Part shown: positions 41,432-62,387 of the stretch, one piece after another
Layout of the letters: every line of letters begins with the position of its first letter
Position numbering within the stretch: the first letter of the stretch is position 1
Source: Lineus longissimus
Taxonomy: Eukaryota; Nemertea; Pilidiophora; Heteronemertea; Lineidae
Reading direction: 5' to 3'
NCBI RefSeq assembly: GCF_910592395.1
Contig: NC_088310.1
Coordinates: 12,717,501-12,781,500 of the forward strand
Length of the DNA: 64,000 bases
Translations under genes and position numbers: made by a program
The notes under the pieces: model-generated
Told to the model about the DNA's origin: nothing
The model's input: the letters and a program-made list of their open reading frames with translations, nothing else
Database searches by the model: none

Positions 41432-42974
41432 TGGCAGAAATAGAAGATGATGTACTGCTCGGGGCAGACATATTGTTAAAGGAGCCTGGAGGGCCAGTCA
41501 ACTTGTTGTTGAAGGAGAGACTTCTGATTATTAATGGGGTAGAGGTACCCTTGAAACTTGTGGGAGCACCAACAAAAGTGAGACGAGTTTATGCTGTGGA
41601 CCATACATTGGTACCCGCATTTAGTGAGTGCATAGTAGACTGTTTTGTAGAGCCCAGAGAGGTTGGTCCAGAGAATTGTGACCGATGTTTGTTAGTAGAA
41701 AACTCAGAATCATGCTTGGTGAACGCATTAGATAATGCCACTGTAAAAGTGAGGGTTTTAAACCCAGATAAGCAACCCAAGTCAATTAAACAAGATATGA
41801 CCATGGGTACGGCTAGTGATGTTAGTCAACCAGTAGAAATTATTTGTGAAGAGGAAAACCTTGACACAAGGGACGACTATACCTGTTCACGCCGCTTGAT
41901 AGTAGAGTCTCCTAAGACAGTACATAGTGTAAAGAGTGACCCTAAAACTGACCATGAGGGTTTGAGAAAGGTGACTGTGGATGAAGGGGAGAGTGAGCAT
42001 AATTTGACTAGTAAAAATGAGAAAAAGGTGAAAGAAAGTGAGAAGCATCAGGTAATAGAGGAAATTCCTGAGTTACCAGCCTATCTCACAGACTTGTTTG
42101 CCCGTTCCTCCGTCAACTTAACACCCCCACAAAAAGTAGAATTAGCGAAATTGCTGTTTGAATTTCAGCATGTGTTCTCCAAGGATGAGAATGATATTGG
42201 GCAAACCAACTTAGTTGAACATGTGATTGATACTGGGGATGCACTCCCAATCAAACAAAACCCTCATAAAGTACCATTGGCATATCAAGATGATGAGCGC
42301 AAATGTATCCAGAAACTGCTTAAGCAGGGAACAATACGTCCCTCAACTTCACCTTGGGCCTCTCCGATTGTCTTGGTAAAGAAAAAGGACGGAAGTATAC
42401 GTCCTTGTTGCGATTTTCGTCGCGTCAACAAAATCATAAAGCCAGTGAGCGAAGCCACACCATTGCCGCGTGTAGCAGATTGTCTCAGCGCGCTAAGTGG
42501 GGCAACTCTGTTCTCTACTATGGACGTCACGAGTGCATACAACAACGTGCCGGTAAAAGAATCTGATATCCCAAAAACTGCTATCTGTTCAAGATATGGG
42601 CTCTATGAGTTCCTTTATATGCCCTTTGGCAGTGCCAACTCTGCCCAGACTTTTCAAAGACTCATTGAGATAGTTCTAGGGGCTATGCAGTGGATTTCAG
42701 TGGTCTTGTACTTAGACGACATAATATGTCATGCTAACAATTTTGAGACACACTTAGAGAGACTCTGTGAAGTCTTCCAACGCTTAAGTGATGCTGGGCT
42801 AAAATTGAAGCCATCAAAGTGTGCATTTCTTCAGACAGAAGTACTATTCCTAGGTCACTTGGTTGATGAATCCGGTATCAGGCCTAATCCAGACAATGTA
42901 ATGAAACTGGTCAACTGGCCTACTCCAAAGACTCCGACTGATGTGCGTGCAGTGTTAGGGCTAGCCTCTTACTA
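41431..42974 (+). pseudogene. pol: Gypsy reverse transcriptase, cut by a DNA transposon
   Basis: Follows the protease with a linker, then RT with RPSTSPWASPIVLVKKKDGS, CCDFRRVN, FSTMDVTSAY, PFGSANSAQTFQRL and the YLDDI catalytic box, plus the LKPSKCAFLQ and FLGHLV blocks. The frame ends at ASY where the 16.2-kb transposon enters at 42975. The continuation is at 59182. Confidence 0.85.
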
Positions 42975-43572
42975 GGTACCCCAAACCCAATGAAATTACT
43001 GGTGGAATGCTAAAACAATGGGCTGGATGCCTCAACTTCAGTCCATTGGTATACTATAACACTTTCCGGGAAGGCTTTTCTGATCTGTGAACGCTGGAAA
43101 TTAAGTTTGATCTTTTATCTCAAAAATGTTCTTTGTATCTCTTTATTCCATGCGAAAATAAACCTACAGCATCCAGTTAAACACAGCACACTTTCCAACA
43201 TTTTGAGAAAAATGCAGCTGATTAGCCAATACCTGTGCGGCTTTGTCTTAGTGGAGCCTGCTTCACAAAACTACATGAACTGAATTCGCAACCGCGCTAT
43301 TTTAAGACAGTTCATTTCCTGGAAAAAACACAAATAGTATCATGTAGCCGAGATTTTGAGGTTTATTTTCGTATGAAACACTTGCATTTTCATTCCCGGC
43401 AAGCCCCACAAATTTCAAGCTGAAAGCAAAGATTTGGGGTTTACATACAGTTTTTGCCGTTTTTTGATCGGAACCCCACCTCAGACCCCCCAAAAACTTG
43501 GTATCCACGGAAAGGGATTTTTTTCAACTCTCCAAATCAATTGACGAAGACAGCTTCCAATCGACGGCGGGC
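42975..43572 (+). other. 5' non-coding region of the unassigned transposon
   Basis: AT-rich sequence between the left terminus and the first recognised coding exon. It presumably contains the promoter. No clear TATA box was pinned. Confidence 0.4.
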
Positions 43573-46500
43573 ATGCGCAATGCACATTTCTTGGCTAGCT
43601 CCACAGGTCAAACCGAGGCCGCGCGTCTCAAAATGGAAATCTCAGCAGGTCTACAAGATCTTCTTCAAGATCGCGGTAAGTGCATTAAAACATCATAAAA
43701 CCATACATATTCACAAAGATTAATGACTTATGATTAAGTTACTGATAGCAAACTGTGTTTTTTATGCCTGTTATGATAAGAAAAGCAGCTTTTGAAGTGG
43801 GGTGTTGAAAAACTTGTGAAAAAAAGCCGATTGGCATTGGAAGACGCCGTCGTCTGAGGCGATTTTTTCGTTCATATCATCGTCTAACTCGACAATTTTT
43901 AGTATCAGAAAATCATAAAATGTCCAAGGAGCCATTCTATGTTGATTGTATTGAATAATTGATAGATTCCTGGCCCTGATAGGTAGTTGAAGTGCACCAA
44001 ATAATTTTCAAAATTGATTGAAGCGGCGGCCATTACCGCAAAATTTGGCTGTTCTATGTACTTTGCATACTCCAACAGCCACTGGTGTTCACTTACGTGT
44101 TGACTGTGTATATCGATTCCTTGTACCAGGGGGTGCAGACACCTCCGAGAATGGCAGTTAACAACAGCTGAGACTAGGTTTTTTTCAATCAAAATGACTG
44201 TATTTCATTAACCTCACAGATGAAATTAATTGCTCAACAATATTTCTGCTATGCTATCAGGCCTAGGCTTACACATGTTTATTGTTGTACAAATAAATAG
44301 GCCTATCACATTTAGTGACATGTACTGTCATGACAGTCCTGTCCCATCAGGTTTATTAGAATGGTTGACACATTTTAATCTTTTTTTTGCTTAAGTTAAA
44401 CCTGTGTAACTTTTTTTTACAGAAGATGACTGGTGCAGGCAAGTTCGGCGATATCTCCAAGCCAAGGGAAAGGGGAAAGGTCGCCCACCTAAACTTCCAG
44501 AAACGAATAGAGATCGAGTTCATAATCATCAACTTGTCCAGATGGGGCGGCTGAAGTCTGAACTCAGCAAGTCATGGAACGTCATCACAGAGGTTATGTC
44601 GTTGATGTTTGACTTCCGTGGATCCCGTGGCTTCCGCACATTGATTAGAACTGCTCAAAATAAACTGAACGTTCTGACTAATGAGGAAGTCCCCAGTTTT
44701 CTTGATGCCTTTGTTGACTTGGCGCTTGTTGGGCCATTGTGTTCATCCCTTGGTGTCAATCGTCATAAACTTTTAGATCCCACGCTACTGAAAGACTGTG
44801 ACAGTGACATCTTTGGCATTCATCAGCTGAAAGTTGGTGTACTTTTTGAATTGGATGACTTTCGAAAGCTGGAAAAGATTGATCTTGAGCACGTGTGCAC
44901 TTGGTTACAGGTGTTAGGAAAGTTAAGTTCTGCTCCCCCTCAGGACAAAGTGAAAGACATTCTCGGTGAACTCCGGAGTGAATTTAAGTCGTTGAACAAG
45001 AGTAAAGCGAGAAAAGGTGATCTTCTGGATGAGCTCTTGCGACGAGATATTGGTGCACAGTTTGACTTGGAAGTGATTCCTCCGACATGTTCGAGTCCAA
45101 ATGAATCTGACACTGAGGCAGTAGGCCTACATTCAGCATCAGATCTTGATGTTAGTACTGGAGATCCTGGAAGTGGAAAAAATGAGGAACTGGAATCCAA
45201 TAAATCTGAGATTGTGGAGCATTCTGGTGACCTCATGTCACCACAGAAACGGGGGGCTTTGATAAAATCACTCAAGGGTGAGCTTGAGGGAAAAAATGTT
45301 CTAATTGGTGAACTAAAAACAAAGTTGGACGCCCTTGCTGAACACTCCAAACATCTTAGTGGTCAGGTATCTGAATTGAACACCACAAATCGTGAAAAGG
45401 ACGCTGAATTATCAGAACTGAAGGCACGTTATTTCCATTTGAAAACCAACTTGTCAAAAAAAGAAAAGGACCTTTCTGACTCTCAACAAAACTTAGTTGA
45501 GTTAAAATCTAGTGGTGTTTACCAAAGGTCGCTGAAAAAACTAAGTGAACTGCAGGAGCAGGAGCAAAAGCTGGAAAAAAAACTTGCTTATCAACGTAGT
45601 GTTAATGATATGAAAGAACAAATTGCTCCTCTAAGAGAAAAAATCACGAGCCTTCAAAACCTCGTTAGTAAGTACAAACTTCAGAACAAAACAAATGCCG
45701 ACAGGGTAACTGAAGAAAAAAAGGAAAGAAAAGCTCTAAAGGCAGAGCTTGTGACTCTGGAGGCAGAATTACTTCATTATCGTAGTCCTGACTCGTTCCA
45801 AACACGAGAGGATGTAAATAACCGGTTCACTGATGAACTTGAGTTGTGTGCCATGGAATTGTCAGGTGAATGCGAGGTTGCATCAGCACGTGTAAGAAAG
45901 GTTATTCAGTGTGTAAGCAAATGGTTGCATGGCCAAAACATCAAAGATGGGGATCTTCCCAGTGCCTCAACCGTCTGCAATTTTGTTGACCGCGCACATG
46001 TCTTAGCAAAATTGCAGGTAGCAGAGGAGTGTTCTGAGAGCAAGTGTTGGGATTTGCATAGTGATGGAACCTCTAGGGACCACAATAAGATAATTGGCAA
46101 ACAAATCACCTTAGAAAGTGGCCAAACCAGGTCTGTTGGGTTTACACCTGTTGCAGTTGAAGACAGTGCGTCCTTGCTAGACAATGTGATTGCAATGATT
46201 GATGAACTGAGTGAGTTGTACTCGGATTGTTCAAAAAATGAAAAAGACACTGTCTTCAGAAATTTTCTTGAGAAAATGTTTGCCGTAATGAGTGATAGGT
46301 GCAGTGTTAACAAGGCATTCAACCGCCAACTGAGTGAATACAAAACAAATTTTCTTGGTAATGAAGTTGACACCCATTTCTTGTTTTGCAATGCCCATTT
46401 CCTTCTTGGTCTCAGCACAGCAGTTGAAGCAAAGTTAAAAGATATAGAAAAAGATCTTGTGGCTGCATTAGGTCATGGCTTGGGTCGTGATGCCAACCCT

Positions 46501-46625
46501 AAATTTCGCACTTTCAAGAATGCTTCTGGTTCAGCCGCCTGTCGATTTGTCCGACTTACCTGTGATGTGCTAGGACCAAGGGGGGATGAGAAGAATGGTT
46601 GCCGGCTCAAGTGGCTCTCTTTTCT

Positions 46626-46690
46626 GGTAACCGGAAAAACGCCGACCGACCGACCGACCGACCGACCTACTCGCCGACTCGCCGACCGAA
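46626..46690 (+). repeat. MULE-2 left terminal inverted repeat
   Basis: Carries about six GACC units after GGTAACCGGAAAAACGCC, then CTACTCGCCGACTC. The right copy has fewer GACC units but is otherwise identical in this block. Confidence 0.9.
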
Positions 46691-46887
46691 AGGAGTTTCG
46701 TAGTTGAGCCTTGCACCATGGTATCATATTTAGCGTCTTCGTTTACTAGCGCCTATAGCATGATTGTATAGTAAAAGTAATCGATCTCGCGCTTCGTGCA
46801 CGGCCAAGTCTTCTGCCTGCGGGAAATCGAATCATGTCCCAAAGAATTATCATCAAACATCATACTGAATTTAAGATAATTTGAGGA

Positions 46888-47441
46888 CCGGTGTAAAAGT
46901 AGAAAGTGTCCCCCCTGGAAAAAGTGTCCGGGCCTATTGTATTCTTACAGATTATAGCATATGGTTCTATAGGCCATGACCGTCAATAACTCGGCGCACA
47001 ATCGAATCCTTTGTTCCCGGACATTTTATCCTAGGACATTTTAAACTTCTACGCCGGTGTAAAAGAAAAAAGTGTCCCCCCTGGAAAAAGTGTCCGGCCC
47101 TATTGTATTCTGCAATATGGTTCTATAGAGACCCTGACAGTCAATAGCTCAGAGATTGAAGCGCATAATCGAATCCTTTGTTCCCGGACATTTTATCCTA
47201 GGACATTTTAAACTTCTACACCGGCCGTTTGTCGGTCTGTTTGTTCCACCACACAACTCCTCCCAGGTGGCTATAGGTCCGGTGTAGAAGTCTAAAATGT
47301 CCTGGGAAACAAAGGATTCTATTATGCACTATATATAATCTCCGAGCTACTGATGGTCATAGCTTCTATAGAACCCCATTGCAGAATACATAGTAGGGCC
47401 GGACACTTTTTCCAGGGGGACATTTTCTACTTTTACACCGG
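46888..47441. repeat. Three copies of a ~165-bp CCGGTGTA inverted-ended repeat
   Basis: Units at 46888-47057 and 47054-47224 are direct and share a CCGG at the junction. A third, 47279-47441, is inverted. Each begins CCGGTGTA(A/G)AAGT and ends ACTTCTAC(A/G)CCGG, so the units have their own inverted ends and look like MITEs inserted into each other or amplified in place. They lie in the non-coding arm of MULE-2. Confidence 0.7.
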
Positions 47442-49411
47442 GCTGTTACACCACAGCAAACTGATTAGTAGCTTTTGTGACGAGGCTATGCCAGGACAAC
47501 CAAGGAGCCATTGTTAAGGCTCAAACTGATGTTGCATTTATAGCTCCGCTGTTTCAGTTGTTCAGTTGTTAACTTGGTAAAAGATCAAGGACAGTGGAGG
47601 TACTGGTATAGGGCAAACCCTGAAGTGGGCAGATTGCGAGTGTTTCACTGTACCTTTCAGTACCACAAGCCCCTTAGCCAAAGGTGATTTTTTTAATAGG
47701 GAGGGAACAGGATCAGCTTCTTAGGCCCTATTAAACTAGGAAACAAAACATTGGACACAGTCCTATAGAAATAAATGTTTATTTCAAAACAATTCAACAA
47801 GTTGGACATGAGATTTTAAGTAGTGTAGTATTCAAAGACAAAGATTACACAAATACTAGTAGTATTAGCAAATGAAAATAATGCAGTCATATTAATCAAT
47901 ATACAGCGCGCCGATGCGGTAATCACCCCCTCACTTTCAGTTCAACTTATATAATTTTTGAGTTCAACTAATAATATTACTCGCGTTGACTGATTAAACA
48001 CAAAAAGGTCTTATCCAGCTAATAAGTGTGAAAGTGTCAGGTCCCTCAACAACATACATGTAAGAGACATTTTCCCTGGTAAATGATACAGGTCCGAACC
48101 AAAAATGCTTAACATGGTGGTTTACACAAACACAACCATACAACAGCAGTAGATTTTGTAAACTAAAATATCAGAATCTATCTTTCATGCTCATAAGCCA
48201 TTTCAGCAGTTAATTTCAGCAGTTTGAATAAACATACATGTACATGTATATTGTAATATGGACATTAATATTTCAACGAACCTTTGAGACTCAGGGAGTC
48301 AGGTTCTCAGTTCCTCTTCTTCTGTGAAGGAGGATCTGATTATGCAAGACTATAAACCTTCAGGCTAAGAGACCGAACACATTATTTTCAGGAACACAAA
48401 AACAAATACAGTAGGTATAACTAATCATCATCAATATGAGCGACACTGAAAGAAATATTTAAAAACTTAAAAACTAAAACAACTGTCACAATTTAATGCA
48501 ACATTAATTCAGATCATAGTACATGTACATGTATAATGAAATTGACTTAGATCAAACGAAACCCAAAACAAAACATTCTGAAGAAGAGAAACCACTCAAT
48601 TTGCATCAAATTAACCATATTTGTTTAAATAGCAACTCGCAACATACCACCTTGACTATGCCATTCATATGAAAATAAATCAATAAAATGTGCTGAATGT
48701 TCCAAAAGGTTAATCAAAATAAACTTGCATTGTTGTATTGCATGCTCATTGCTACAACATCCATCAATAATTATTTGGTAAGATTATTGATTACATACAT
48801 TTTTGAAACATTACATCACTTGTAAGACCATATGAAAATGCGGTTTTACTTAAGTAATCTTAAAATACTAATATAGGATGGTGATGAAAAACTGATGCAT
48901 AATATAACAAACATGTACCCAATAGGCAATACATAAAACTTTGGATTATGAAATTAAATATCCAGATACAACTTACCACCTTGACTCTGTAATTCACAGT
49001 AAAATAAATAAATAAATTTGTGACCAGTTCCAGCAAAACCCAAAAACCCACCAGTAAGCAGAGTGAATACTTTCAACCGATTTGTACGATCGTGGTAGGT
49101 CAAGTTTAGCTGCAGCTCGCCACATCGCAGAACCCTTATGAATGCAGTAAAGGTTTTTGTATTATACCAGTATCCACACAGAAGTACATTGTAACTGTCC
49201 AGAAAGCCCATTGATTGACTAATTCCTTTGAAACAACATTAGACATGTTAAATGTACACTAAATCATAAGACATAACAGTAGGCATTTACCCGAGACATA
49301 AGAACTCTAAATAGCAAAGATATAATCAAATGACTGAATGTCGTCATGGTAGTCAGGTAGTTTGTACATACCAAGTAATGTATGCAGGATGGCTGGTACT
49401 CATGACAATGA
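47442..49411. other. Non-coding arm of MULE-2
   Basis: About 2 kb of AT-rich sequence downstream of the transposase. The short open frames here show no motif. No RNA gene or nested element was recognised beyond the CCGGTGTA repeats to its left. Confidence 0.4.
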
Positions 49412-52400
49412 TTAATACAAGGATTGGAAAAAAGCATCCAATCGTTCCAAATGGTCACTGCTGAGTGTAGGTTTAATACTGTCAGGAATGACAATGTTGT
49501 CAGATGTTACCCTCCCATGTTTAATCACAAGGCATCCCTTCTGGAGATGATAGTACGTATTCTGTGGATTTGGTGTCATCACCAATTCACCAGTATTTGG
49601 ATGGCGGTACTCCCTATATTCCTGGGTTTTCAGAATGACATCACTTGGAGCTGTCCTATCTTCTTCTGTGAAACAACCACGGCAACCATAACATCGTTTT
49701 ATGATACCTGCGATGAAAGTTAGCTCAAATTTCTTGGTCATCTCGTCTGGAATGACCTTTTCAAGATCACTTGGTTTCCCAGCAGCTGCACTTGGCTGGC
49801 GCTTCCTTGTGGCTGGCTTTCTCCCACGAGAGGAGGACATGTCCTTCTGTAACACCTTTGAAAGATTGACGGCTTTACCTTTCTTTCCAACAAATGAAAG
49901 AAATTTGTCCATCACACCCATATCCTGAGCACACCTCAAGCTGTGAGAGCAAAGGCCAAGTGACTTGTAGTTGGCACAGTCACACTCACATCTCCCATTT
50001 GGAAGCTGCGACACAATGTGTGGCTTTCTGGGGTTCGACCTGCTAGGTACGATCCGCATTGTGCTAGTACCAGGGACTACCCCAACAGTCATGTCTACTG
50101 CTTTACTGCACATGTCTTCCAAAATGCCCACTGGTATATTGCCATGATGAATGTTGTAAGTTTTCACTTTCTCGTAATAGATGTTTACGCTGCTTTCTTG
50201 AGCCAGTCCTTCGTTGAGTACTAACTGATCAGTCGATGATGGAATGGGAAAGGGTGCGTTGTGAAATTTTCGTACTGCAGCAATACGGGCAGTTGGACTG
50301 GACGCCATCTTTGCCCAATCCTGTGGTTTGACTTCGTACATGCGGTATTCCGGTTTAAGCTCGTATGGACCTCTATTCAATATGGCTTCCTCCAACCGTT
50401 TCTCCTGTTCATTGACAAACTTTTCCAAATTTACGGCAAAGGAAAATTCATCAATGTTCTTTCCTGTCTCTTCCTTCATGATTTTGTGCACTAGCTCAAC
50501 AGAGTTAGTAGTGTATCTCTCATGGGGAATCCCAGCCATTTCCCGGATGGGAGCTATCAGTGAATCGCACATGTATTCCGAATAGTTTTCAAGAAACCAA
50601 ACATAGAACTGAGCACCTTTCCCATTGCTGCAACTCTCCCACTTAGGCTTCAACTTTTCAATCGATGAGGCAAATGCTGACCTACTAGCAGAATCAATCA
50701 ATCCTACCACTGCCACCTTTCCAAATATATCAGCCAGAAACTGGTCCTTCTCACAAATATGCAGCTCCTCTAGCTTCCTGGTTATGTTCTTTTTGGCATG
50801 GAGCTCGCATCCTACATGGGTGGCGAAAGGAAATTCATCTCGGAAAGCGCCCTTAAGAGCCTCTTCATTATCTGAGCCAAAACTGAGGACATTACCTAGC
50901 CGTGGGTCCAGGATTTTTAATGCACTGGCAAACTGCGCATAAGTTTGCTTTGTTTTCTTTTGGTGGACCATGACTGGACCAATCGTCACAGGCGATTTTA
51001 CACTACCGCGCCGGTTCAGCATTTGATGTTCATACGCTATGACAGTCACATCAAACTTGCCAACACCAAATGTGACATCCACTGCGAAAGGCCGATACTT
51101 CTGTGGATTGCAGCAAAACCGTGCTATATCGTTTAGCTGGCGATCCGAGCACAGAACAGCAATGGGCTGTGGCGCTCCCCGGACACTTCTCAAAAATTTG
51201 TCATTTTCCTTGCATTTTACTTGAAGGGACAGCCAGGGATCATTGTCCTTTCCCTTCGGGCGCATTTTCCTAACTTGTTCATAGGACCTAGGAATTTCCC
51301 CCATGCTATGAGTCTCGGCCAAAGGTGTCGTTACCATATTAAACACCTTTGTGTGTTTAAGATGATTGTCCGACTCCCTAATTTCGTTTTTGACGCTTTC
51401 ACAAGTCCTGAAATAGGGAGTGGTCAACTTTTTGGCGTTACCATGCACTCCTGGAGACACTGCATGCTCCTCATTTGCAAAGCTGTATTGAATGAGAACA
51501 ACACTTTTAAGTTTCCCGTTCGTCGTCATAGAGTCAATCCTTTTCCTCACATCTTTATGCGCATTCAGCTTGAAAAAATCCCTTCTTACAGTTATTTGTT
51601 CCTTTCCATGATCATCCAATTTGAGGTTGTCGTGATTGTTATCTAAGTAACTACCACGGTAGTTGTATCGCTTATTCCCAAGGTTCTTCCACGAACCCAT
51701 ATCGTCACACTTGTAATCCAAATGATTTCGGAGGCGAGACGAATCAACAAGGAATGTTACATTATTTTCAACCAAGATTGGCTGTACCGATGCAACCTTT
51801 TCCAAAGGTGCATCCAAAAGAAGATTGATCAGTTCTTTTTGATTTGGGACATCCTTGCCAAAACAGTAGACCGGAAGGTCTGGATTCCCATGATAGTATG
51901 ATCTCTCTATTGTTGTGCTTGGTTCGTCATTCATGTCGCTGTCAGTGTCATCGCTAATGACTACCACTGATTTTGGAGACCTAAAAGATAAAATCATTGT
52001 GCGTTCAGTTAACGGGAACTACACACAGGCAAAGGTTTCCATGCGTTGATCCATCATAGGGTTGAGCATCAACGTTCCATTCTTGCCCAATATTTGGATA
52101 GGTATCATACCATGGATGGAACCAATGGTTATATGTACCATCAACTGTGGGCCCATCATTGATCCATGGATGGAATCCCTTATAGCATTTTTTGACCTTT
52201 CTTATTTTCCAGAATTGGAAACTGCCTCACAAATTAGTATCTTTGTACTTTGACGCATAGGGTCTATAACAGAACTTCTATCAATGGATAGTCCGTGGGC
52301 CATCAGTGGATCTACCATGGGCTATCATACAATCTACGATGGGATCCCTAAGTAAAACATGATTATGATAGTCATAATATTCAGATATTCATACTCTATA

Positions 52401-54933
52401 ACAAAGCTAAAGACAAAACTTATGTTTTTGCATCATCATTATTTGTTAATCAAAGCAGTCTGTGCCAGTGTCAAGCCAATCAGAGAGTAGTTTCGGAGTT
52501 ATGCCAGATTTGCCAGCCCTTCCGGTCCAAATCATACCTTGTGGTTTGCTGCAATTCATCATCATCACTTTTTTTATCGGGGGTAGATGGTGGGACAGAG
52601 GTTCGGGAACTTAAAAAAAAGAAAGATTTTGATTAAAGTAATGTCAATACTGACACATAAGGTTCACCATTTTCACAAGATGTTTCATGATATGATAATG
52701 ATAAGCATCTGATGAACCTGGTTCACAAAGGAAGTTTCTTTTCCAAACTTGATATTACCATTTCTCTACTTACGGTACCCAGAACTGTACCCAGAACTGT
52801 CCAAGAATATGTCAGTTTCCTAGGCCAAGCTATATACACAATTTCAAAATGATTTAAAAAATAGTATAAAATGTAGGCCAACCCGGGGGGGCCTAATTTC
52901 ATTTAGCTACCTTTACCTTTTATTGACTGGAGGTAAATCAGGGAGGTGGATGTCATCTTCGAGCTCTTGGTTTTCCAGGTTTGGTACAAAACTGAAAAAA
53001 AGAATATAAAGTTGAAGAGTGGATTACGTTGAAACGTGTGTGGGCTTGAAAATGTGGTGAAATCAGAAACTTGATATTCACTTAATACCACTTGAATTTC
53101 ATGGAATTCCCTCAAGTTTTATTAGAGTGATTGCAAAATCATTGTGAAGTTGCAATGTGATGAATTTCAACGGACTGGACTGCATGCACAGGATTACTCC
53201 ACCTGTGATATATCTTTATTACATTTACATGGGTACATGTAGATCATCCTCCTCATCGACTCGTGCAATAATATTTCTGAATCTTATATTCTCTCTTTCC
53301 TTGTTCCTTCGGTTAAATGCCCGCAATTAGGGTATCACTATCAGTGCTGAGACTGCACTTTAGACTGACCGTGACCTACCTGTCATTCTCATTTTCATCT
53401 TTCACTTTGGTTTGGAGCACAAGTTTCCTTTTGCTAAAATAAGAAAAGAACACCCTTTGTAAGACTGCCGGTAGTCGAAACCCATCCCTGCGTCAGTAAC
53501 AAGTATAGTAGAAGCTCTCTTTCAAGGAACTGGAAACCCTTGGGACTGACAAATGCTGCTCTTAATAGAGAGGTCAAATTTAATGGAAACAACCTACTAA
53601 TTTGGGACCAAAACTAGTGTCCTTTTCCCTAAGCTAAATGTACCTTATCTACATCATTCATAGTGTACATGTTAGCCTAAGAAAAAACGATTTCCTGAAA
53701 ATCAGCATAATTTCTTTGGCTTTTGGCTATTTCTTTTCTGTTTTTTTCCCTAGTGGTCTCAAGGGTCTAGGACATTTCCCCCTCGACAAGCTACCACCCC
53801 CCTGACGATTGCCCCCAGGACAATTCCGCCCTTTAACCAATTGCCCTAGGACAATTGGTCATGGACATCACCCCCCCCCCCCCCCCCCCCCAGACAAATG
53901 CCCCCAAGCTTTAGCCAATTGCCAGGGGTAATCGTCCAGGGATTAATCATTCACGGCTGGGGCAACTGTCCTTGGGACATTTGTCAAGGGGCGGGGGGGG
54001 GGGGCAATTACCATTATCAAAGGAAAAGTCACGACTAGGTGGGCCTACTTAGGTCATGTATGATGTACATGATGTAGGCCTAGTCCTAGATCATCCAGCC
54101 CTTTTGAAATTGTATAGGCCTACTTTACCAAACTCGTCCCCAGTGCAGTATACGTACCACCAACACCACTGGCATAGGCTGAATCGCTTTCACAAGAATG
54201 TTGTGAAGCGTTGGCCCAGTGCCAAAAATAAAAACTGCCTTATGTACTGAATAGGGTATAGATAAGATACATTTTAGATAGAAAACACATTTTTTGTCAA
54301 AATACTTGAATTTGGACGTTGATTATCTACGATTTAAGAATAACATGCTCAGGACTACTTGAATCCTTCCGCCAAAACGCGTTGTACGGTCAAAAAATTA
54401 GTATATATCGATGCGCATAGTTTAATGCATAAAGCAGTAGACCAAAAGTAGATCGACGCAGTCTATTCCAGTGGTGTTGGAGGTACGTAAACTCAGCTGG
54501 GGACGAGTTTGCTACTTTACTTTTGATTTGGCAATTTAGGCTAAATTGTACATTATTATGTACAGGCGTCAGTAAATTTGCTCTCTCCTCAGTCTTCTTC
54601 TACCACACATGATGACACGGACTGACACGCATTTTAAAAAGTAGCCATGCCGTGTCCATGTGCCAGCATCTGTACGCCTACATGTATACATGTATATAGG
54701 AAAAGCACGTGCATCCACTACCCGTCATCGACTAAAAAAAACATCCAACAAAAACCACTCTGAGTGCATAGATTGGGCCCGTTATCTCGTTTATATATCG
54801 ACTATTAGGCAAACAATGTCTTTAAGATGATGTCATCATCATTTCCTTACCGATTAGGCTTGCTTTGCCGGTAGAATTCTTGTAGGAATTCCATCGATTT
54901 CTCGGGACTGCTGCCGCTGTCAGACTCCATCAT
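49412..54933 (-). CDS. MULE-2 transposase, five exons, 950 aa, apparently intact
   Basis: Exons by GT-AG and phase: 54933-54851, 53433-53380, 52991-52917, 52609-52538 and 51980-49412, totalling 2,853 nt. The four short N-terminal exons encode acidic, Ser/Pro-rich, poorly conserved sequence. The large exon contains the MULE catalytic core with Asp near residue 396 (VDVTFG), Asp near 465 (FGSDNEEA), Cys-x2-His near 486-489 (CELH) and Glu near 590 (NSVELVHK). A SWIM finger (CDC...CSH) follows near 761-774, then a basic linker and a Cys-rich CYGCRGC segment. It should mobilise the surrounding element and, being intact, may still be active. The small exons are inferred from splice signals and consistent phase 2 joins. 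Confidence 0.8.
53755..54010. repeat. C-run degenerate minisatellite in MULE-2 first intron
   Basis: Units such as CAATTGCCCTAGGACAATT and CCCCCAGGACAATT recur, with a 21-base C run (about 53871-53891) and a long G run (about 53991-54004). It resembles 6154-6346 on the opposite strand. It lies in the intron between exons 1 and 2 of the MULE-2 transposase. Confidence 0.65.
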
Positions 54934-54967
54934 GCTCACGCTGGGTATGAGGAGCGAATGGGATGCC

Positions 54968-55027
54968 GTAAGTGAGGTTAGAGTCGGCGAGTAGGTCGGT
55001 CGGTCGGTCGGCGTTTTTCCGGTTACC
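54968..55027 (-). repeat. MULE-2 right terminal inverted repeat
   Basis: Inverted match to 46626-46690 with about four GGTC units. Its inner edge is about 35 bp upstream of the transposase start codon at 54933, so the terminal repeat probably includes the promoter. Confidence 0.9.
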
Positions 55028-55690
55028 CTCTTTTCTTGAAGAAAATCTTCAGAAGAAATCAAAAGTAACAAGCTTCAGAATGAACCGCTTCAACAATTTC
55101 TTTCTTGGGGCCGCCACTCTTTTTCATCATTCCTCTGATATGATACTGTTTTTTGAACATTTTGAACAGCTGAACTTGAAATTGGAGAGTGTTCAAATTG
55201 ATAATACATCCCCTGAGATTCTGGCCTTGGCACGGGCCCTTGGCATACTTTATTATAAGGTTAGTGGGCCATTTTGGCTCATGCTTCAGGGAGATGTTGA
55301 GTATGTTGACCAGTATCAATATATTCAAGAGATGCTTGCCAAATTCAAGCAGTGGGAAGCAGATTCGACATCTCTCATGTCAAGAGACCAAAATGGTATA
55401 TTTGGTGCTCAGTTCTTCCCTCCTCGGGATGAAGTCTATGAGAGTTTGTTCTCTGACATGCACTCCTCAGAGTCCGACTTGACCAAATCGGCTCTCGAGA
55501 AGTTGATGACTGCATGCATAATGGTCACAGAACGACAACTTGTGGACTTCCTTCCTGGGGGGAGGTACAGTTCACCAGCAACAGAAGAGCAAAGAATTTC
55601 TATGAAACACTGCAAGTTAACTAATCTAGTGAGTGAATGGGAATTCGGAGATCTCATCTTTGGAATGTATAAGCGTAGAAATGCTTCCCT

Positions 55691-55738
55691 TTTTGGCTCA
55701 CCGTAGGGGAGTCTATACAACACCGCAGTGTCCGTCGT

Positions 55739-55772
<34 letters not shown>

Positions 55773-57223
55773 TGTCCGTCGTATCCTAGTTCAAAAACAG
55801 TGGCACGTTTTTTAACCGCTAGGCCTATGAACTTAAAACTTTGTACACATGACCCCCTAGGTCAGATGACCCGTGACACTAAATTTCTGTCCGATCTGAT
55901 TCTCTACTTGGCCACCAGGGGGCCAAATGTGGATATCTAAAAAGTGTGATATCTCGCTTATTAGTGACTTGTTTTCGATAAAACTTTTGTGGTAGGTACT
56001 CATAGCAAGGATACATCATATATCATACGGGTTTTTAATTTGATCTACTTTTCAAGGTCGCAGAGGTCAAATGGCGTGAATTGGCCGTTTGAGTGTAACT
56101 ATGGCACGTTTCTCAATCACCAAAGCTATGAGCTTGAAACTTGGTACATATAACCCCCTATATCAGATAACCTCTGGTGCTGAATTTCAGCCTGATCTGA
56201 TTCTTGACTATGCCACCAGGGGGCCAAAACAGAAAAAGTAAGAAGTGCAATAGTTTGTTTATTAGCAAATTGTTTTTGATGAAATTTTTATGGCAGGGAC
56301 CCCTAGCAAGGTTACCTCAGATGTTGCACGATTTTTCGGATTTGACCTACTTTTTAAGGTTGGAGAGGTCAAATGGCGTAAATTTGCTATTTGAGTGTAA
56401 CTATGGCACGTTTCTCAACCGCAACAGAAATGAACTTGAAACTTTGAACAAATGACCCCCTAGGTCAGTTGACCTTTTACACTGAATTTTGGTTCGGTCT
56501 GATTATTGACTTGGCCACCAGGGGGCCCAAACTCAAAACTCAAAAAGTGTGATTTCTCGCTTATTACTGATTTGTTTTTGATAAAAGTTTCATGGTAGGT
56601 ACTCCCAGCAAGGGTACATCACATATCTTACAGGTTTTTGATTTGACCCACCTTTCAAGTTCACAGAGGTCAAAGTTGAAAACTTTACCGTTCTTGGTAC
56701 GTTTTGTCGTTGTTCAATGTAAAGAGTTTTAATTTTGTGCAATGATGCATCTAAGAAGCCATTATTTGTATGCCAAGTTTCAGCCAGATCGGAATTCAAA
56801 TATGGCCGAAATTGCATGTTTTGTGGGTTTTTCCTCGTATTGTGGCAATCCAAAGGTCGTGAGTTCAAACCCCGGTCAAGGACAGCCAAAAATATTTTTA
56901 TTTTTCATCTTTTCCTTTTTTATTTTCTGAGTTCTATCTTACATTTTCTTCATTTTTTGATTTATTTGGTGCCATAGATTTAATTAGGCGGCCATCTTGG
57001 AAATGGTTTTTTGCCGATTGCTGTAGTGTAACGAGTGATGAAATTGTTATGGTCAGGTGGATGTGTCTACATCACATATCACCCTGGTTTGTTATTTGAC
57101 CTACCTGTCAGGGTCACTGAGGTCAAAGTTAAAAATGTATTCACCATTGTCATACTGTAGCACTTTCTGTAACTGTCTACTAAAAATACTTACGGTGAGC
57201 ACAATGGCCCCTGGCCGTTTCAT
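55691..57223. mobile_element. Satellite-bearing Helentron-like (HINE) element, copy 3
   Basis: Begins TTTTGGCTCACCGTAGGGG, followed by the GTC tract and about five diverged ~300-bp monomers. It ends GGTGAGCACAATGGCCCC then TGGCCGTTTCAT. It interrupts the unassigned transposase: the frame is open to 55690 and again from 57224, with no duplicated bases, and the join falls at a TT. CTCF-like CCACCAGGGGGC occurs at about 55913, 56212 and 56515. Confidence 0.65.
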
Positions 57224-58200
57224 TTACCATTCAAGTCTGCAAATGATAAAGAGAAATTACACAATTTCTCAGTGGCTCACTAGAAAACCACCTGCTGAAC
57301 GTAAAAGGCTGCTGAAATTTGCCCGGTCAAAAAGTTCTACTGTAAAGGGGAAATACAGAAAGGAAGACCCTAGTGAAGACCCTAGCTAGGCTTGAAGAGT
57401 CCCGTAGAAACAAAGAAAAGAAGAAGACTGACAAGTTGGCTGCCCTCCAAAAAATAACAGCAACTGTAATTGCTCATGGGGGTCCTTGTGTGAATGGAGC
57501 TGATGTTCAGAGGGTTATAGCTGGGGGGAAGTCTCAAACTCAGCAGATGAGTATTCTTAAAGATGAGATAAGGTACATAACTAAAGTGCTAGGAAAAAAG
57601 GATGATCGTCTAGTCATGGCGAAGAAATCCTTCCAACGTCTGTATGCTGACTTCATTTCTTATTTGGGACTTGCTCCTTCCACTGGTTCTGGGCAAGACC
57701 AAATCCTTGCTGATGTTGTTCCTCCTCCACCTGCAAGAAAGAGAAAGTATAATGAAATTTGTGATCGTGGTGACTCGGAGTCAGAATCAGAATTGGAACT
57801 GGAAAACTCTGAAGATGAGTTCTTGGAATCAGATTCTGATTCTGTGTCTTTCGCCAAGTCTGATGCAGGTAATGAAAATGAGGAGGTGGAGGAATGGAGT
57901 TATAATTTTTCTTTTTCTAGACAAGGTGTGCCAGTCGCTGTAGCATATGATGAAGGGTTCTTCCTGGGTGAGGTCCTTCAAGTTGAGAGTGAAGATGTTG
58001 CAAAGGTCCAGTTTATGAAGGCTGGATATGGCAACACTTATAAGTGGCCTGTAGTGGAGGATATTGATGAGCATGTAGAGGCAAAGTTCATAATCTATGC
58101 TGATTTCAGTGTAGAAGTGAAGGGGAGATGTTCCATTGTCCCTGATTTGGGGAAAATAGAAAAACAGTTCAGAACCTTTAAGAAGCTGTTCCTTGAGTAA

Positions 58201-59173
58201 CCTTTGTATCTCACTCCTGTGTATAACTATAAACGGTTGAGAAGCGAAATCGGTAAATGAGAGTGTTAAAATGTTTTGCCTGTTGTACTCCTTGTACTTT
58301 TTATTCATTGGGAAAAGAACTTGTTGACTTGTTGAAGCTGACCATGAAGGACAATACCTGAAAATCTCAAACAAATCTGTTGGATATATGATTTTTAAAA
58401 TTTTTTCGAAGACCTGCAATTTTGGCAGAATTTTCCGTTTTTGGCCAAAAGGGGTTAAAGGTCTCGGTTATTTCAGATTAACTAAAATGAAGAAGCTGTA
58501 CTTTTTTATAATGAACTTTATTAGAAGAATAAATGCTGAAAATTTGGTACAATTCTGTTGTACGGTTGTTTTTATATGAATTTTTGAAGTTGGTGCATTT
58601 TTCGCTATTTTTGGCACTTTTTATCAAATGGTGATTTTGGCCCCGGAAGCCTTTTTGGGGGTCAATTTCCCTATGTTACAACCTTCTGCTACCCCCAGAA
58701 AAAATTGGAGGGGCAGAACCTGTCCCATAGGCATAGGAAATGTGAAATAATGACTTTCTGGGTCAATAAATTTTTCAAAAATGTCCGTCAAATATGCAAG
58801 CAATCCCATTACGGACCTTCGCCAGACAGTGGAAAATTGAATTTTTTTGCACTTTTGATGGTCAATTAAAAAAAAAGTAAGCCACCTATGCCTCTGGAAC
58901 TCTTTGTGCTCTTTCTCTGGGGTAGATATTAGTAGAAAATAGCATTAGAACCAAACCTGGATGCTTACTTATTGAATTGGGGGGTCCCAAAAATGCTACT
59001 TTTTACTGCCTCGGGCACGCCCGAAACAAGGAAACAGTAAAAATGGTCCCATTTTCGTATTTCTTGCCCGATTTTAGCAAATGAGGTGTCGTTCGGCTCG
59101 TAACAACATTTTCAATAAGATAAAACCATCAGAAGTCACCTAAAAGCACTTTGAAAAATTCACTTGTGGTACG
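58201..59173 (+). other. 3' region of the unassigned transposon
   Basis: AT-rich 3' flank of the transposase frame, ending at the right terminus that touches the duplicated TCTTACTA. No further gene was supported. Short open frames on either strand lack motifs. Confidence 0.45.
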
Positions 59174-59181
59174 TCTTACTA

Positions 59182-61242: not shown

Positions 61243-61474
61243 TGGGCCTAAAAAGTGTGGCTGTGTATCACTGAAGATTGCCTATATCATTACTCTGTCA
61301 CTACCTTATTTTGAATCTGAGGGGCGCTGTCTCCTTCTTATCAAAGCACCTTCATGGCTTATTGTGGGCTTATAGTATTAAGTTGTAGACATCTACATGA
61401 TTGTTGACATGTGATATATATTTTAAAATGGCTTTTATAGCTGGTTTGTAGAGGAATAAATGTCTTACCTCTTG

Positions 61475-61489
61475 TGTTTTCCATTTCAG
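61475..61489 (+). promoter_or_regulatory. Splice acceptor directly before Gypsy ORF3
   Basis: The pyrimidine-rich TGTTTTCCATTTCAG ends at 61489, four bases before the ORF3 start codon at 61494. With the donor at 38030/38031 it would allow a spliced subgenomic mRNA, as used for the envelope position of gypsy-type elements. Use of this site is inferred. Confidence 0.5.
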
Positions 61490-61493
61490 GATC

Positions 61494-62387
61494 ATGCAGT
61501 CGTCGCGAGAACGTTTTCGGTGTCTGCGGTGCAGCCATGTCGGCACAGGGTTTAATGCCTCCGTTAGCCATGTTCTTAAAGAACACTTCACGCCACAACA
61601 GGTTCCGTGGTACTGTCTGCTATGTCGGGCGAGGTCCAGAACTAGGAGTATCGCCACCAAACATTTCCACTCCCAACATTGGAAAGAGGCCAAACAGGGC
61701 CAAAACTTTCAGAAGACGGTTGGTGGCCGTTTGCGCAACTGGACACAGAACGATTTTCTGAATTGGCTAGAGGAAACAAAGCCGCTGTCAACCAGTGCCA
61801 AGCTACCCCCACAGTCTGTGAGGAGTGCCGTCAGGGTTCCTGAGTTACGTCGGGCCCAGTTGAGGCCATTTTGTAAACAAACCTTGTCAGAGGACCTGGT
61901 GGGTGAAGAAGACCGGCCCATGGACTTGTCCGTTCAGAACAGTGTTTTAAATGAGGGCCCACAGGATTCCCCTGTTGAGGGCGGGGAAAACCTAAGTAAT
62001 CCCCAGGCTATGCCTGAACTTAGCTTAACAGAGACATGTGCGACAAAAGCAACTGTCCTGCATGAAACTGTCTTCAAGTCCATGGATGACTTCCGCCAGG
62101 ACGTATTCTCCATGGTGCAAGAAGCCCTGAGCCAGCATGTGGGCGTTGCCCCCAACACGTTAACAGAGATACAGGAGCAGCTGGCAAAGCAAACAGCCAT
62201 CCTGCAGGAGCTGTCCAGCCGGAAATGTCCGTGTTCCTGTAGTTGTAGCGGACCAGACGTGCCACCGAAGGAAGAGGCGGGGCCAGTCAGCCCACGATTT
62301 TCAAAGTTCAAGAACCTGAGGAGCGATGAAGAGGGAAGTGATGGGAACTTTAGCATCAGTGATATGTGGACTATTGACTTGCCGTGA
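61494..62387 (+). CDS. Gypsy ORF3: two-zinc-finger accessory protein, 297 aa
   Basis: Intact frame downstream of integrase, where gypsy-type elements may carry env. The first 75 residues hold two C2H2-like fingers (FRCLRCSH ... HVLKEHF and WYCLLCRAR ... HFHSQHW). A Ser/Pro/Glu-rich middle follows, then an amphipathic helix (about residues 195-245, FRQDVFSMVQEAL...IQEQLAKQTAILQEL). A CPCSCSCSG cysteine cluster and an acidic tail end the protein. There is no signal peptide or membrane segment, so it is not an envelope protein. A nucleic-acid-binding or regulatory role is likely. It is the only Gypsy frame without an internal lesion. Confidence 0.65.
   Translation: MQSSRERFRCLRCSHVGTGFNASVSHVLKEHFTPQQVPWYCLLCRARSRTRSIATKHFHSQHWKEAKQGQNFQKTVGGRLRNWTQNDFLNWLEETKPLSTSAKLPPQSVRSAVRVPELRRAQLRPFCKQTLSEDLVGEEDRPMDLSVQNSVLNEGPQDSPVEGGENLSNPQAMPELSLTETCATKATVLHETVFKSMDDFRQDVFSMVQEALSQHVGVAPNTLTEIQEQLAKQTAILQELSSRKCPCSCSCSGPDVPPKEEAGPVSPRFSKFKNLRSDEEGSDGNFSISDMWTIDLP

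What the first reader, a model, noticed from the sequence alone, without database searches (positions are those of the whole stretch)
42975..59173. 16-kb DNA transposon with 8-bp duplication and a transposase of no superfamily I can name
Boundaries are certain: TCTTACTA duplicates flank it and the Gypsy RT frame is open across it. Its two-exon protein of about 1,310 codons has Asp (DLHSDGTS), Asp (VMSDRCSVNK) and CNAH in an order like hAT/MULE cores. It lacks a SWIM finger, BED finger or KDZ signatures, and has an AT-hook-like N-terminus, a long coiled coil and an SH3/Tudor-like C-terminus. Related proteins are plentiful in fish and cnidarian genomes, usually as uncharacterised. A complete element with exact ends would let the family be defined.
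Basis: partly seen in the sequence, partly recalled or inferred. Interest (0 to 1): 0.75.

Follow-up and report, generated by a model that had tools for sequence, protein, structure and literature searches.

The report
hAT-like transposon with chromatin-reader tail
This is a damaged copy of a large cut-and-paste jumping gene from a ribbon worm; its enzyme is predicted to fold like hAT transposases but matches no catalogued protein family, and it ends in a domain that looks built to read marks on chromatin.

The parts
42973..59172 (+). host DNA transposon with its nested inserts (about 6.3 kb without them)
   Evidence: ends set by the rule of related copies; flanked by interrupted Gypsy pol frame
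42966..42972 (+). left copy of the inferred 7-bp target duplication CTCTTAC
   Evidence: fits nTnnnAn of six other copies
59173..59179 (+). right copy of the duplication, first base differs (GTCTTAC)
42973..42984 (+). left terminal repeat TAGGTACCCCAA
   Evidence: compare TAGGTATCCCAA of the C17:1.56 Mb copy
59143..59172 (+). right end; inner part matches the right end of the C17:1.56 Mb copy (CAAGTGAAwTTTTCAAAGTG), last three bases absent by comparison
44422..46625 (+). main coding piece: N-terminal helical domain, coiled coil, first part of the RNase H core
46063..46065 (+). proposed first catalytic Asp (DGTS)
   Evidence: D in 58 of 62 rows, 3 gaps, 1 Ala
46294..46296 (+). proposed second catalytic Asp (MSDR)
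   Evidence: D in 60 of 62 rows, 1 gap, 1 Asn
46387..46398 (+). CxxH motif (CNAH)
   Evidence: C and H in 62 of 62 rows
46626..55027 (.). nested MULE-like transposon, 9-bp duplication CTCTTTTCT at 46617-46625 and 55028-55036; minus-strand transposase-like ORF 49412-52018
   Evidence: inverted ends; ORF; weak MULE Pfam match E 0.12, below cut-off
55029..55700 (+). coding piece: insertion domain and end of the RNase H core (right limit approximate; the tblastn match runs to 55739)
   Evidence: tblastn with P0002
55635..55637 (+). proposed catalytic Glu (NLVSEWEFGDL)
   Evidence: E in 54 of 62 rows, 7 gaps, 1 Gln; in a helix of the model
55700..57218 (.). second nested insert with three ~300-bp repeats; exact ends and duplication not found
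57219..58197 (+). C-terminal coding pieces; frame changes between 57368 and 57382
57892..58197 (+). Agenet/Tudor-like C-terminal domain
   Evidence: weak profile match to Agenet structures; cage aromatics

Best explanation
A class II cut-and-paste DNA transposon. Its ~1,100-1,200-aa transposase would bind the TAG-starting inverted ends, cut with a DDE RNase H core that carries a large helical insertion between the second Asp and the Glu (as in hAT Hermes), and join the ends with a 7-bp stagger at nTnnnAn targets. A predicted helical N-terminal domain and a coiled coil probably serve end binding and multimerisation, and a C-terminal Agenet/Tudor-like domain probably reads a methylated lysine. 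Shown: ends, duplications, conserved motifs, recent transposition of relatives. Predicted: the fold. Inferred: catalysis and the roles of the outer domains. The window copy itself is dead.
Confidence: 0.82

Rival explanations
1. It is simply a divergent subgroup of the hAT superfamily, perhaps already filed as such in Repbase or Dfam, comparable with hAT5, hAT6 and hAT7.
For: Hermes-only top fold matches; 7-bp hAT families exist in rust fungi (PMC12730594, passages); TIR TAGGG of L048/L049 (the hAT end pattern is recalled); target nTnnnAn resembles the Hermes target (PMC10368747, passages); SERxF-like motif around the Glu (the hAT motif is recalled).
Against: No hATC or BED Pfam match; no profile match to Hermes; protein nearly twice Hermes' 612 aa; extra N- and C-terminal domains.
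Confidence: 0.45
2. It belongs to the P superfamily (P, Galileo, THAP9), which also has a coiled coil before the RNase H core (recalled) and, for Galileo, 7-bp duplications.
For: 7-bp duplication; for Galileo only term counts of '7-bp TSD' in a search listing were seen. CxxH-type motifs also occur in P (PMC3706591, passages).
Against: No THAP or P-element match among the Pfam hits of 33 + 4 + 18 sequences. The top fold matches are hAT, though absence of P chains from the list excludes nothing.
Confidence: 0.08
3. It is a KDZ/Zisupton or Dada element.
For: Large transposase; Zisupton 8 bp, Dada 6-7 bp duplications (PMC12730594 and PMC3706591, passages).
Against: No KDZ match among the Pfam hits (that Pfam holds a KDZ model is recalled). 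Dada-U6 and Dada-U1 lack terminal inverted repeats, Dada targets small RNA genes, and D2-E is 176 in Dada-U6_DR; here there are inverted repeats, varied target sequences and D2-E of 302.
Confidence: 0.05
4. It is a host gene family spread by segmental duplication, not a transposon.
For: NCBI annotates LOC135484780 as a gene; ten of 16 loci showed no clean ends with duplication.
Against: Insertion into Gypsy pol, whose frame continues on the other side; near-identical copies on different chromosomes with sharp ends and different duplications.
Confidence: 0.03

Closest known systems
hAT superfamily (Hermes of the housefly; hAT5/6/7 variants)
   Different: 7-bp duplication (usually 8 in hAT, 7 in hAT7); no BED or hATC match; no profile similarity found; ~1,100-1,200 aa; long coiled coil, unmatched helical N-domain, Agenet-like C-domain; elements of 5.8-7.7 kb against 2.5-5 kb for hAT (PMC3942097, passages)
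P superfamily (P element, Galileo, THAP9)
   Same: coiled coil before the core (recalled for P); CxxH-type motif; 7-bp duplication in Galileo (term counts in a search listing only)
   Different: no THAP or P models among the Pfam hits; GTP-binding insertion not tested directly
Dada superfamily
   Same: 6-7 bp duplication; large protein; C/DxxH motif (PMC3706591, passages)
   Different: no terminal inverted repeats in Dada-U6/U1, zinc fingers, small-RNA-gene targets, D2-E 176
Gypsy-10_Ec32 of Ectocarpus (Tudor-carrying retrotransposon)
   Same: mobile element whose polyprotein ends in a Royal-family reader (PMC12477816, passages)
   Different: LTR retrotransposon; its authors call it, to their knowledge, the first reported TE with a Tudor domain; here a DNA transposon transposase

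Membership tests
hAT superfamily | RNase H core with Asp, Asp, CxxH, Glu | tested here: met
   predicted model; conservation
hAT superfamily | large all-helical insertion between second Asp and Glu, as in Hermes | tested here: met
hAT superfamily | 8-bp target duplication | tested here: not met
   7 bp is the one length that fits all six copies; L049 and L051 cannot be longer than 7. 7-bp hAT7 families are in print
hAT superfamily | target pattern nTnnnnAn | tested here: inconclusive
   analogous pattern one base shorter, nTnnnAn: T2 in 6 of 6, A6 in 5 of 6
hAT superfamily | hATC dimerisation domain (PF05699) | tested here: not met
   not among the hits of 33 members at E<=0.01, 4 ORFs at E<=1, 18 cores at E<=5
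hAT superfamily | N-terminal BED zinc finger | tested here: not met
   no BED among the Pfam hits; N-domain modelled as helical. Not all hAT have BED (recalled)
hAT superfamily | sequence similarity to hAT transposases | tested here: inconclusive
   no Hermes hit with profile A3; profile-profile comparison with hAT proteins of this genome not possible, the genome search unanswered
P superfamily | THAP domain and P-element transposase models | tested here: not met
   not among the hits; that Pfam holds these models is recalled
P superfamily | GTP-binding domain inserted in the RNase H core | tested here: inconclusive
   no P chain among the listed fold matches, which excludes nothing
KDZ/Zisupton | KDZ transposase similarity | tested here: inconclusive
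   no KDZ model among the Pfam hits, its presence in the library being recalled; no direct comparison made
KDZ/Zisupton | 8-bp duplication of Zisupton | tested here: not met
   7 bp
Dada | no terminal inverted repeats; shared small-RNA-gene targets | tested here: not met
   inverted repeats present; six duplications of different sequence, and the window copy lies in Gypsy pol
Royal-family (Agenet/Tudor) reader | barrel similar to Agenet | tested here: inconclusive
   4 of 4 PDB hits at E<=10 are Agenet/DUF724, best E 0.0019, but the best single stretch has i-Evalue 0.99; the domain was not folded or searched alone
Royal-family (Agenet/Tudor) reader | three-aromatic cage | tested here: met
   positions matching ADCP1 Y129, W134, F151 by my spacing are aromatic in 23, 22 and 23 of 23 sequences
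Royal-family (Agenet/Tudor) reader | binds methylated lysine | not testable with these tools
   needs a binding assay

The most novel reading that the evidence does not exclude
A superfamily-level lineage of animal DNA transposons, sister to or deep within hAT, that steers its insertions with a built-in C-terminal Agenet/Tudor-type reader of histone methylation: a DNA-transposon counterpart of chromodomain retrotransposons.
Probability: 0.35. Interest if true: 0.85.

Novelty: new variant of a known kind. Interest (0 to 1): 0.66.

Why it matters
It gives ends, a duplication rule, a domain map and recently moved copies for a transposase family that the Pfam scans did not recognise and that NCBI annotates as uncharacterised genes, so gene catalogues of molluscs, nemerteans and echinoderms can be cleaned. 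If the C-terminal domain reads histone marks, it would make chromatin-guided integration by a cut-and-paste transposase directly testable; the one held paper I saw that speaks to it calls a Tudor-carrying Gypsy, to its authors' knowledge, the first TE with such a domain (PMC12477816, passages).

Tried and rejected
First protein search with the whole exon 2 found only the window's own gene model, only the 7985 candidates sharing most words being scored; restricting to the core worked. Profile A1 against the PDB: the 60 shown of 388 matches lie mostly at the coiled coil and look like coiled-coil proteins. NCBIfam scan of P0001: 17 weak hits, mostly in the coiled coil, none a transposase. N-terminal model against the PDB: 26 matches at E<=10, best E 2.7, none meaningful; N-terminal profile: best E 0.22. 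P-element, KDZ and Dada chains did not appear in the fold lists; that excludes nothing. L046 has a right end but no matching left end; L050 has both inverted ends but no duplication; C6:7.72 Mb gave one AT-rich pair that I judged chance and dropped; C13:10.09 Mb gave only pairs inside a larger palindrome, not counted; L052, L053, C20:9.24, C20:7.20 and C16:12.35 Mb gave no convincing ends in the stretch read. A hunt for further copies with the window's end sequences and for hAT genes of this genome (for a profile-profile test) did not complete. Second insert: ends CTCACCGTA/TACGGTGAG seen, no duplication found. Literature searches for this family under another name: 20 listed of 2,009; 20 of 22; 15 of 15; 12 of 285; 10 of 38; 13 of 13; 12 of 84; I recognised none in these listings. 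Repbase and Dfam could not be searched.
Full report
WHAT IS THERE. The window belongs to Lineus longissimus (bootlace worm): the gene model LOC135484780 is identical to the window's frame over the 95% of the query it covers, and the window is C3:12717501-12781500 of a 391-Mb assembly. A Gypsy-like pol frame ends abruptly at ...GLASY just before 42975 and resumes as YRRHIKGF after 59174. TCTTACTA occurs three times in the window (1.56 expected), so the evidence for insertion is the interrupted frame and the shared ends of relatives, not the 8-mer.

NESTED INSERTS. Inverted repeats of 47 bp, 89% complementary, lie at 46626-46672 and 54981-55027. They are flanked by the 9-bp direct repeat CTCTTTTCT and enclose a minus-strand ORF of 868 codons with a SWIM-like cysteine cluster (the motif is my reading; MULE Pfam match E 0.12, below cut-off): a MULE-like element of 8.4 kb. 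It splits the transposase frame after ...CRLKWLSFL. NCBI's model removes it as an intron, keeping 22 extra residues (compare). A second insert of about 1.5 kb with three ~300-bp repeats lies between about 55700 and 57218, and the frame changes between 57368 and 57382. The host element is thus about 6.3 kb and this copy is dead.

ENDS AND DUPLICATION. I looked for ends in 16 loci: the window, L046-L053, four joined stretches (C20:9.24, C6:7.72, C17:1.56, C13:10.09 Mb), and flanks of C17:1.53, C20:7.20 and C16:12.35 Mb. Six gave inverted ends with a 7-bp duplication: L047 (7712 bp, TTTGCAA), L048 (5952 bp, ATTATAG), L049 (5952 bp, ATTTTAG), L051 (5831 bp, GTTAATA), C17:1.56 Mb (6012 bp, CTAGAAA) and C17:1.53 Mb (GTAAAAA). 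The inverted repeats begin TAGG or TAGC in five; the sixth reads AATAGG with 7 bp or ATAGG with 9 bp. L049 and L051 cannot be longer than 7 bp; L048 and C17:1.56 Mb can also be read as 9 bp, and L047 as 8 bp (with unequal ends) or 5 bp. So 7 bp is the one length that fits all six. In 11 of the 16 loci a fixed search (exact 7-bp duplication, first 8 end bases equal) found 6 pairs, one AT-rich pair in C6 being dropped as chance, against 5 pairs in 220 shuffles. Position 2 of the duplication is T in 6 of 6 and position 6 is A in 5 of 6. Hermes prefers 8-bp nTnnnnAn (PMC10368747, passages).

THE WINDOW COPY BY THIS RULE. Its left end is TAGGTACCCCAA from 42973, after CTCTTAC. Its right end has the same inner sequence as the C17:1.56 Mb copy (CAAGTGAAwTTTTCAAAGTG), but its last three bases and the first base of the duplication are altered. 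TCTTACTA looked like 8 bp because both the element and the target continue with TA (inference from the other copies).

FAMILY. The core finds 62 proteins at E<=0.01, the window's own model included; a divergent member's core finds 10 more. In the Lineus genome the core gives 70 matching fragments among 95 candidates, several belonging to one copy; the tool calls such counts lower bounds. Copies L048 and L049 are 99.85% identical over 5966 bp on different chromosomes with different duplications; L050 and L051 are 99.9% identical over 5832 bp. L048 and L049 each hold an uninterrupted 1216-codon frame. So relatives moved recently.

OUTER DOMAINS. The N-terminal 199 residues of the window's exon 2 model as a helical domain with an invariant GxGR motif (pLDDT 89) without a solved match (best E 2.7). 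The C-terminal ~100 residues form strands in the P0030 model; their profile (11 sequences) hits four PDB sequences at E<=10, all Agenet/DUF724, best E 0.0019 for ADCP1 Agenet 1/2. That whole-sequence value sums two weak stretches; the best single stretch has an i-Evalue of 0.99. The domain was not folded or fold-searched alone. ADCP1 reads H3K9me1/2 with cage residues Y129, W134 and F151 (PMC6318295, passages). The positions that match these by my own spacing are Y/F in 23, F/Y in 22 (one H) and F in 23 of 23 sequences: the window and the 22 of 33 A1 rows with at least 85 residues there; the other 11 rows were left out. The script looked for F at the third position, but F41 is also invariant in the 11-row alignment. 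I read this as a methyl-lysine reader; that is inference.

WHAT IT WORKS LIKE, AND MEMBERSHIP. It works most likely like a hAT transposase. It fails three tests often used to file an element as hAT (8-bp duplication, hATC, BED); hAT families with 5, 6 and 7 bp exist (PMC12730594, passages), so the first of these is soft. I call it a new variant: hAT-type catalysis with its own ends, N-domain and reader. Whether it is a superfamily of its own stays open; Repbase and Dfam were out of reach and the search for this genome's hAT genes, needed for a profile-profile test, did not complete.

NOVELTY. Seven literature searches (listings capped as told under Tried and rejected) listed no paper that I could recognise as describing this family; only listings, abstract starts, one outline (PMC12730594) and the cited passages were seen. 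A 2025 paper calls a Tudor-carrying Gypsy of Ectocarpus, to its authors' knowledge, the first reported TE with a Tudor domain (PMC12477816, passages).

Noticed in passing
46626-55027: Nested MULE-like transposon with GGTAACCGGAAAAACGCCGACC(GACC)n ends, 9-bp duplication and a minus-strand 868-codon SWIM-type ORF without internal stops.
   Followed up: partly
55700-57218: Insert with three ~300-bp repeats; related repeats lie in the C6:7.72 Mb stretch.
   Followed up: partly
46617-55036: NCBI model LOC135484780 splices the MULE out as an intron and keeps 22 extra residues, an annotation artefact.
   Followed up: yes
46888-47441: Repeats CCGGTGTAAAAGTAGAAAGTGTCCCCCCTGG inside the MULE, in direct and inverted copies.
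   Followed up: no
61452-62387: 311-codon ORF with cysteine/histidine pairs just beyond the Gypsy element.
   Followed up: no
L051:8463-8999: Integrase-like ORF (my reading) next to the L051 copy.
   Followed up: no
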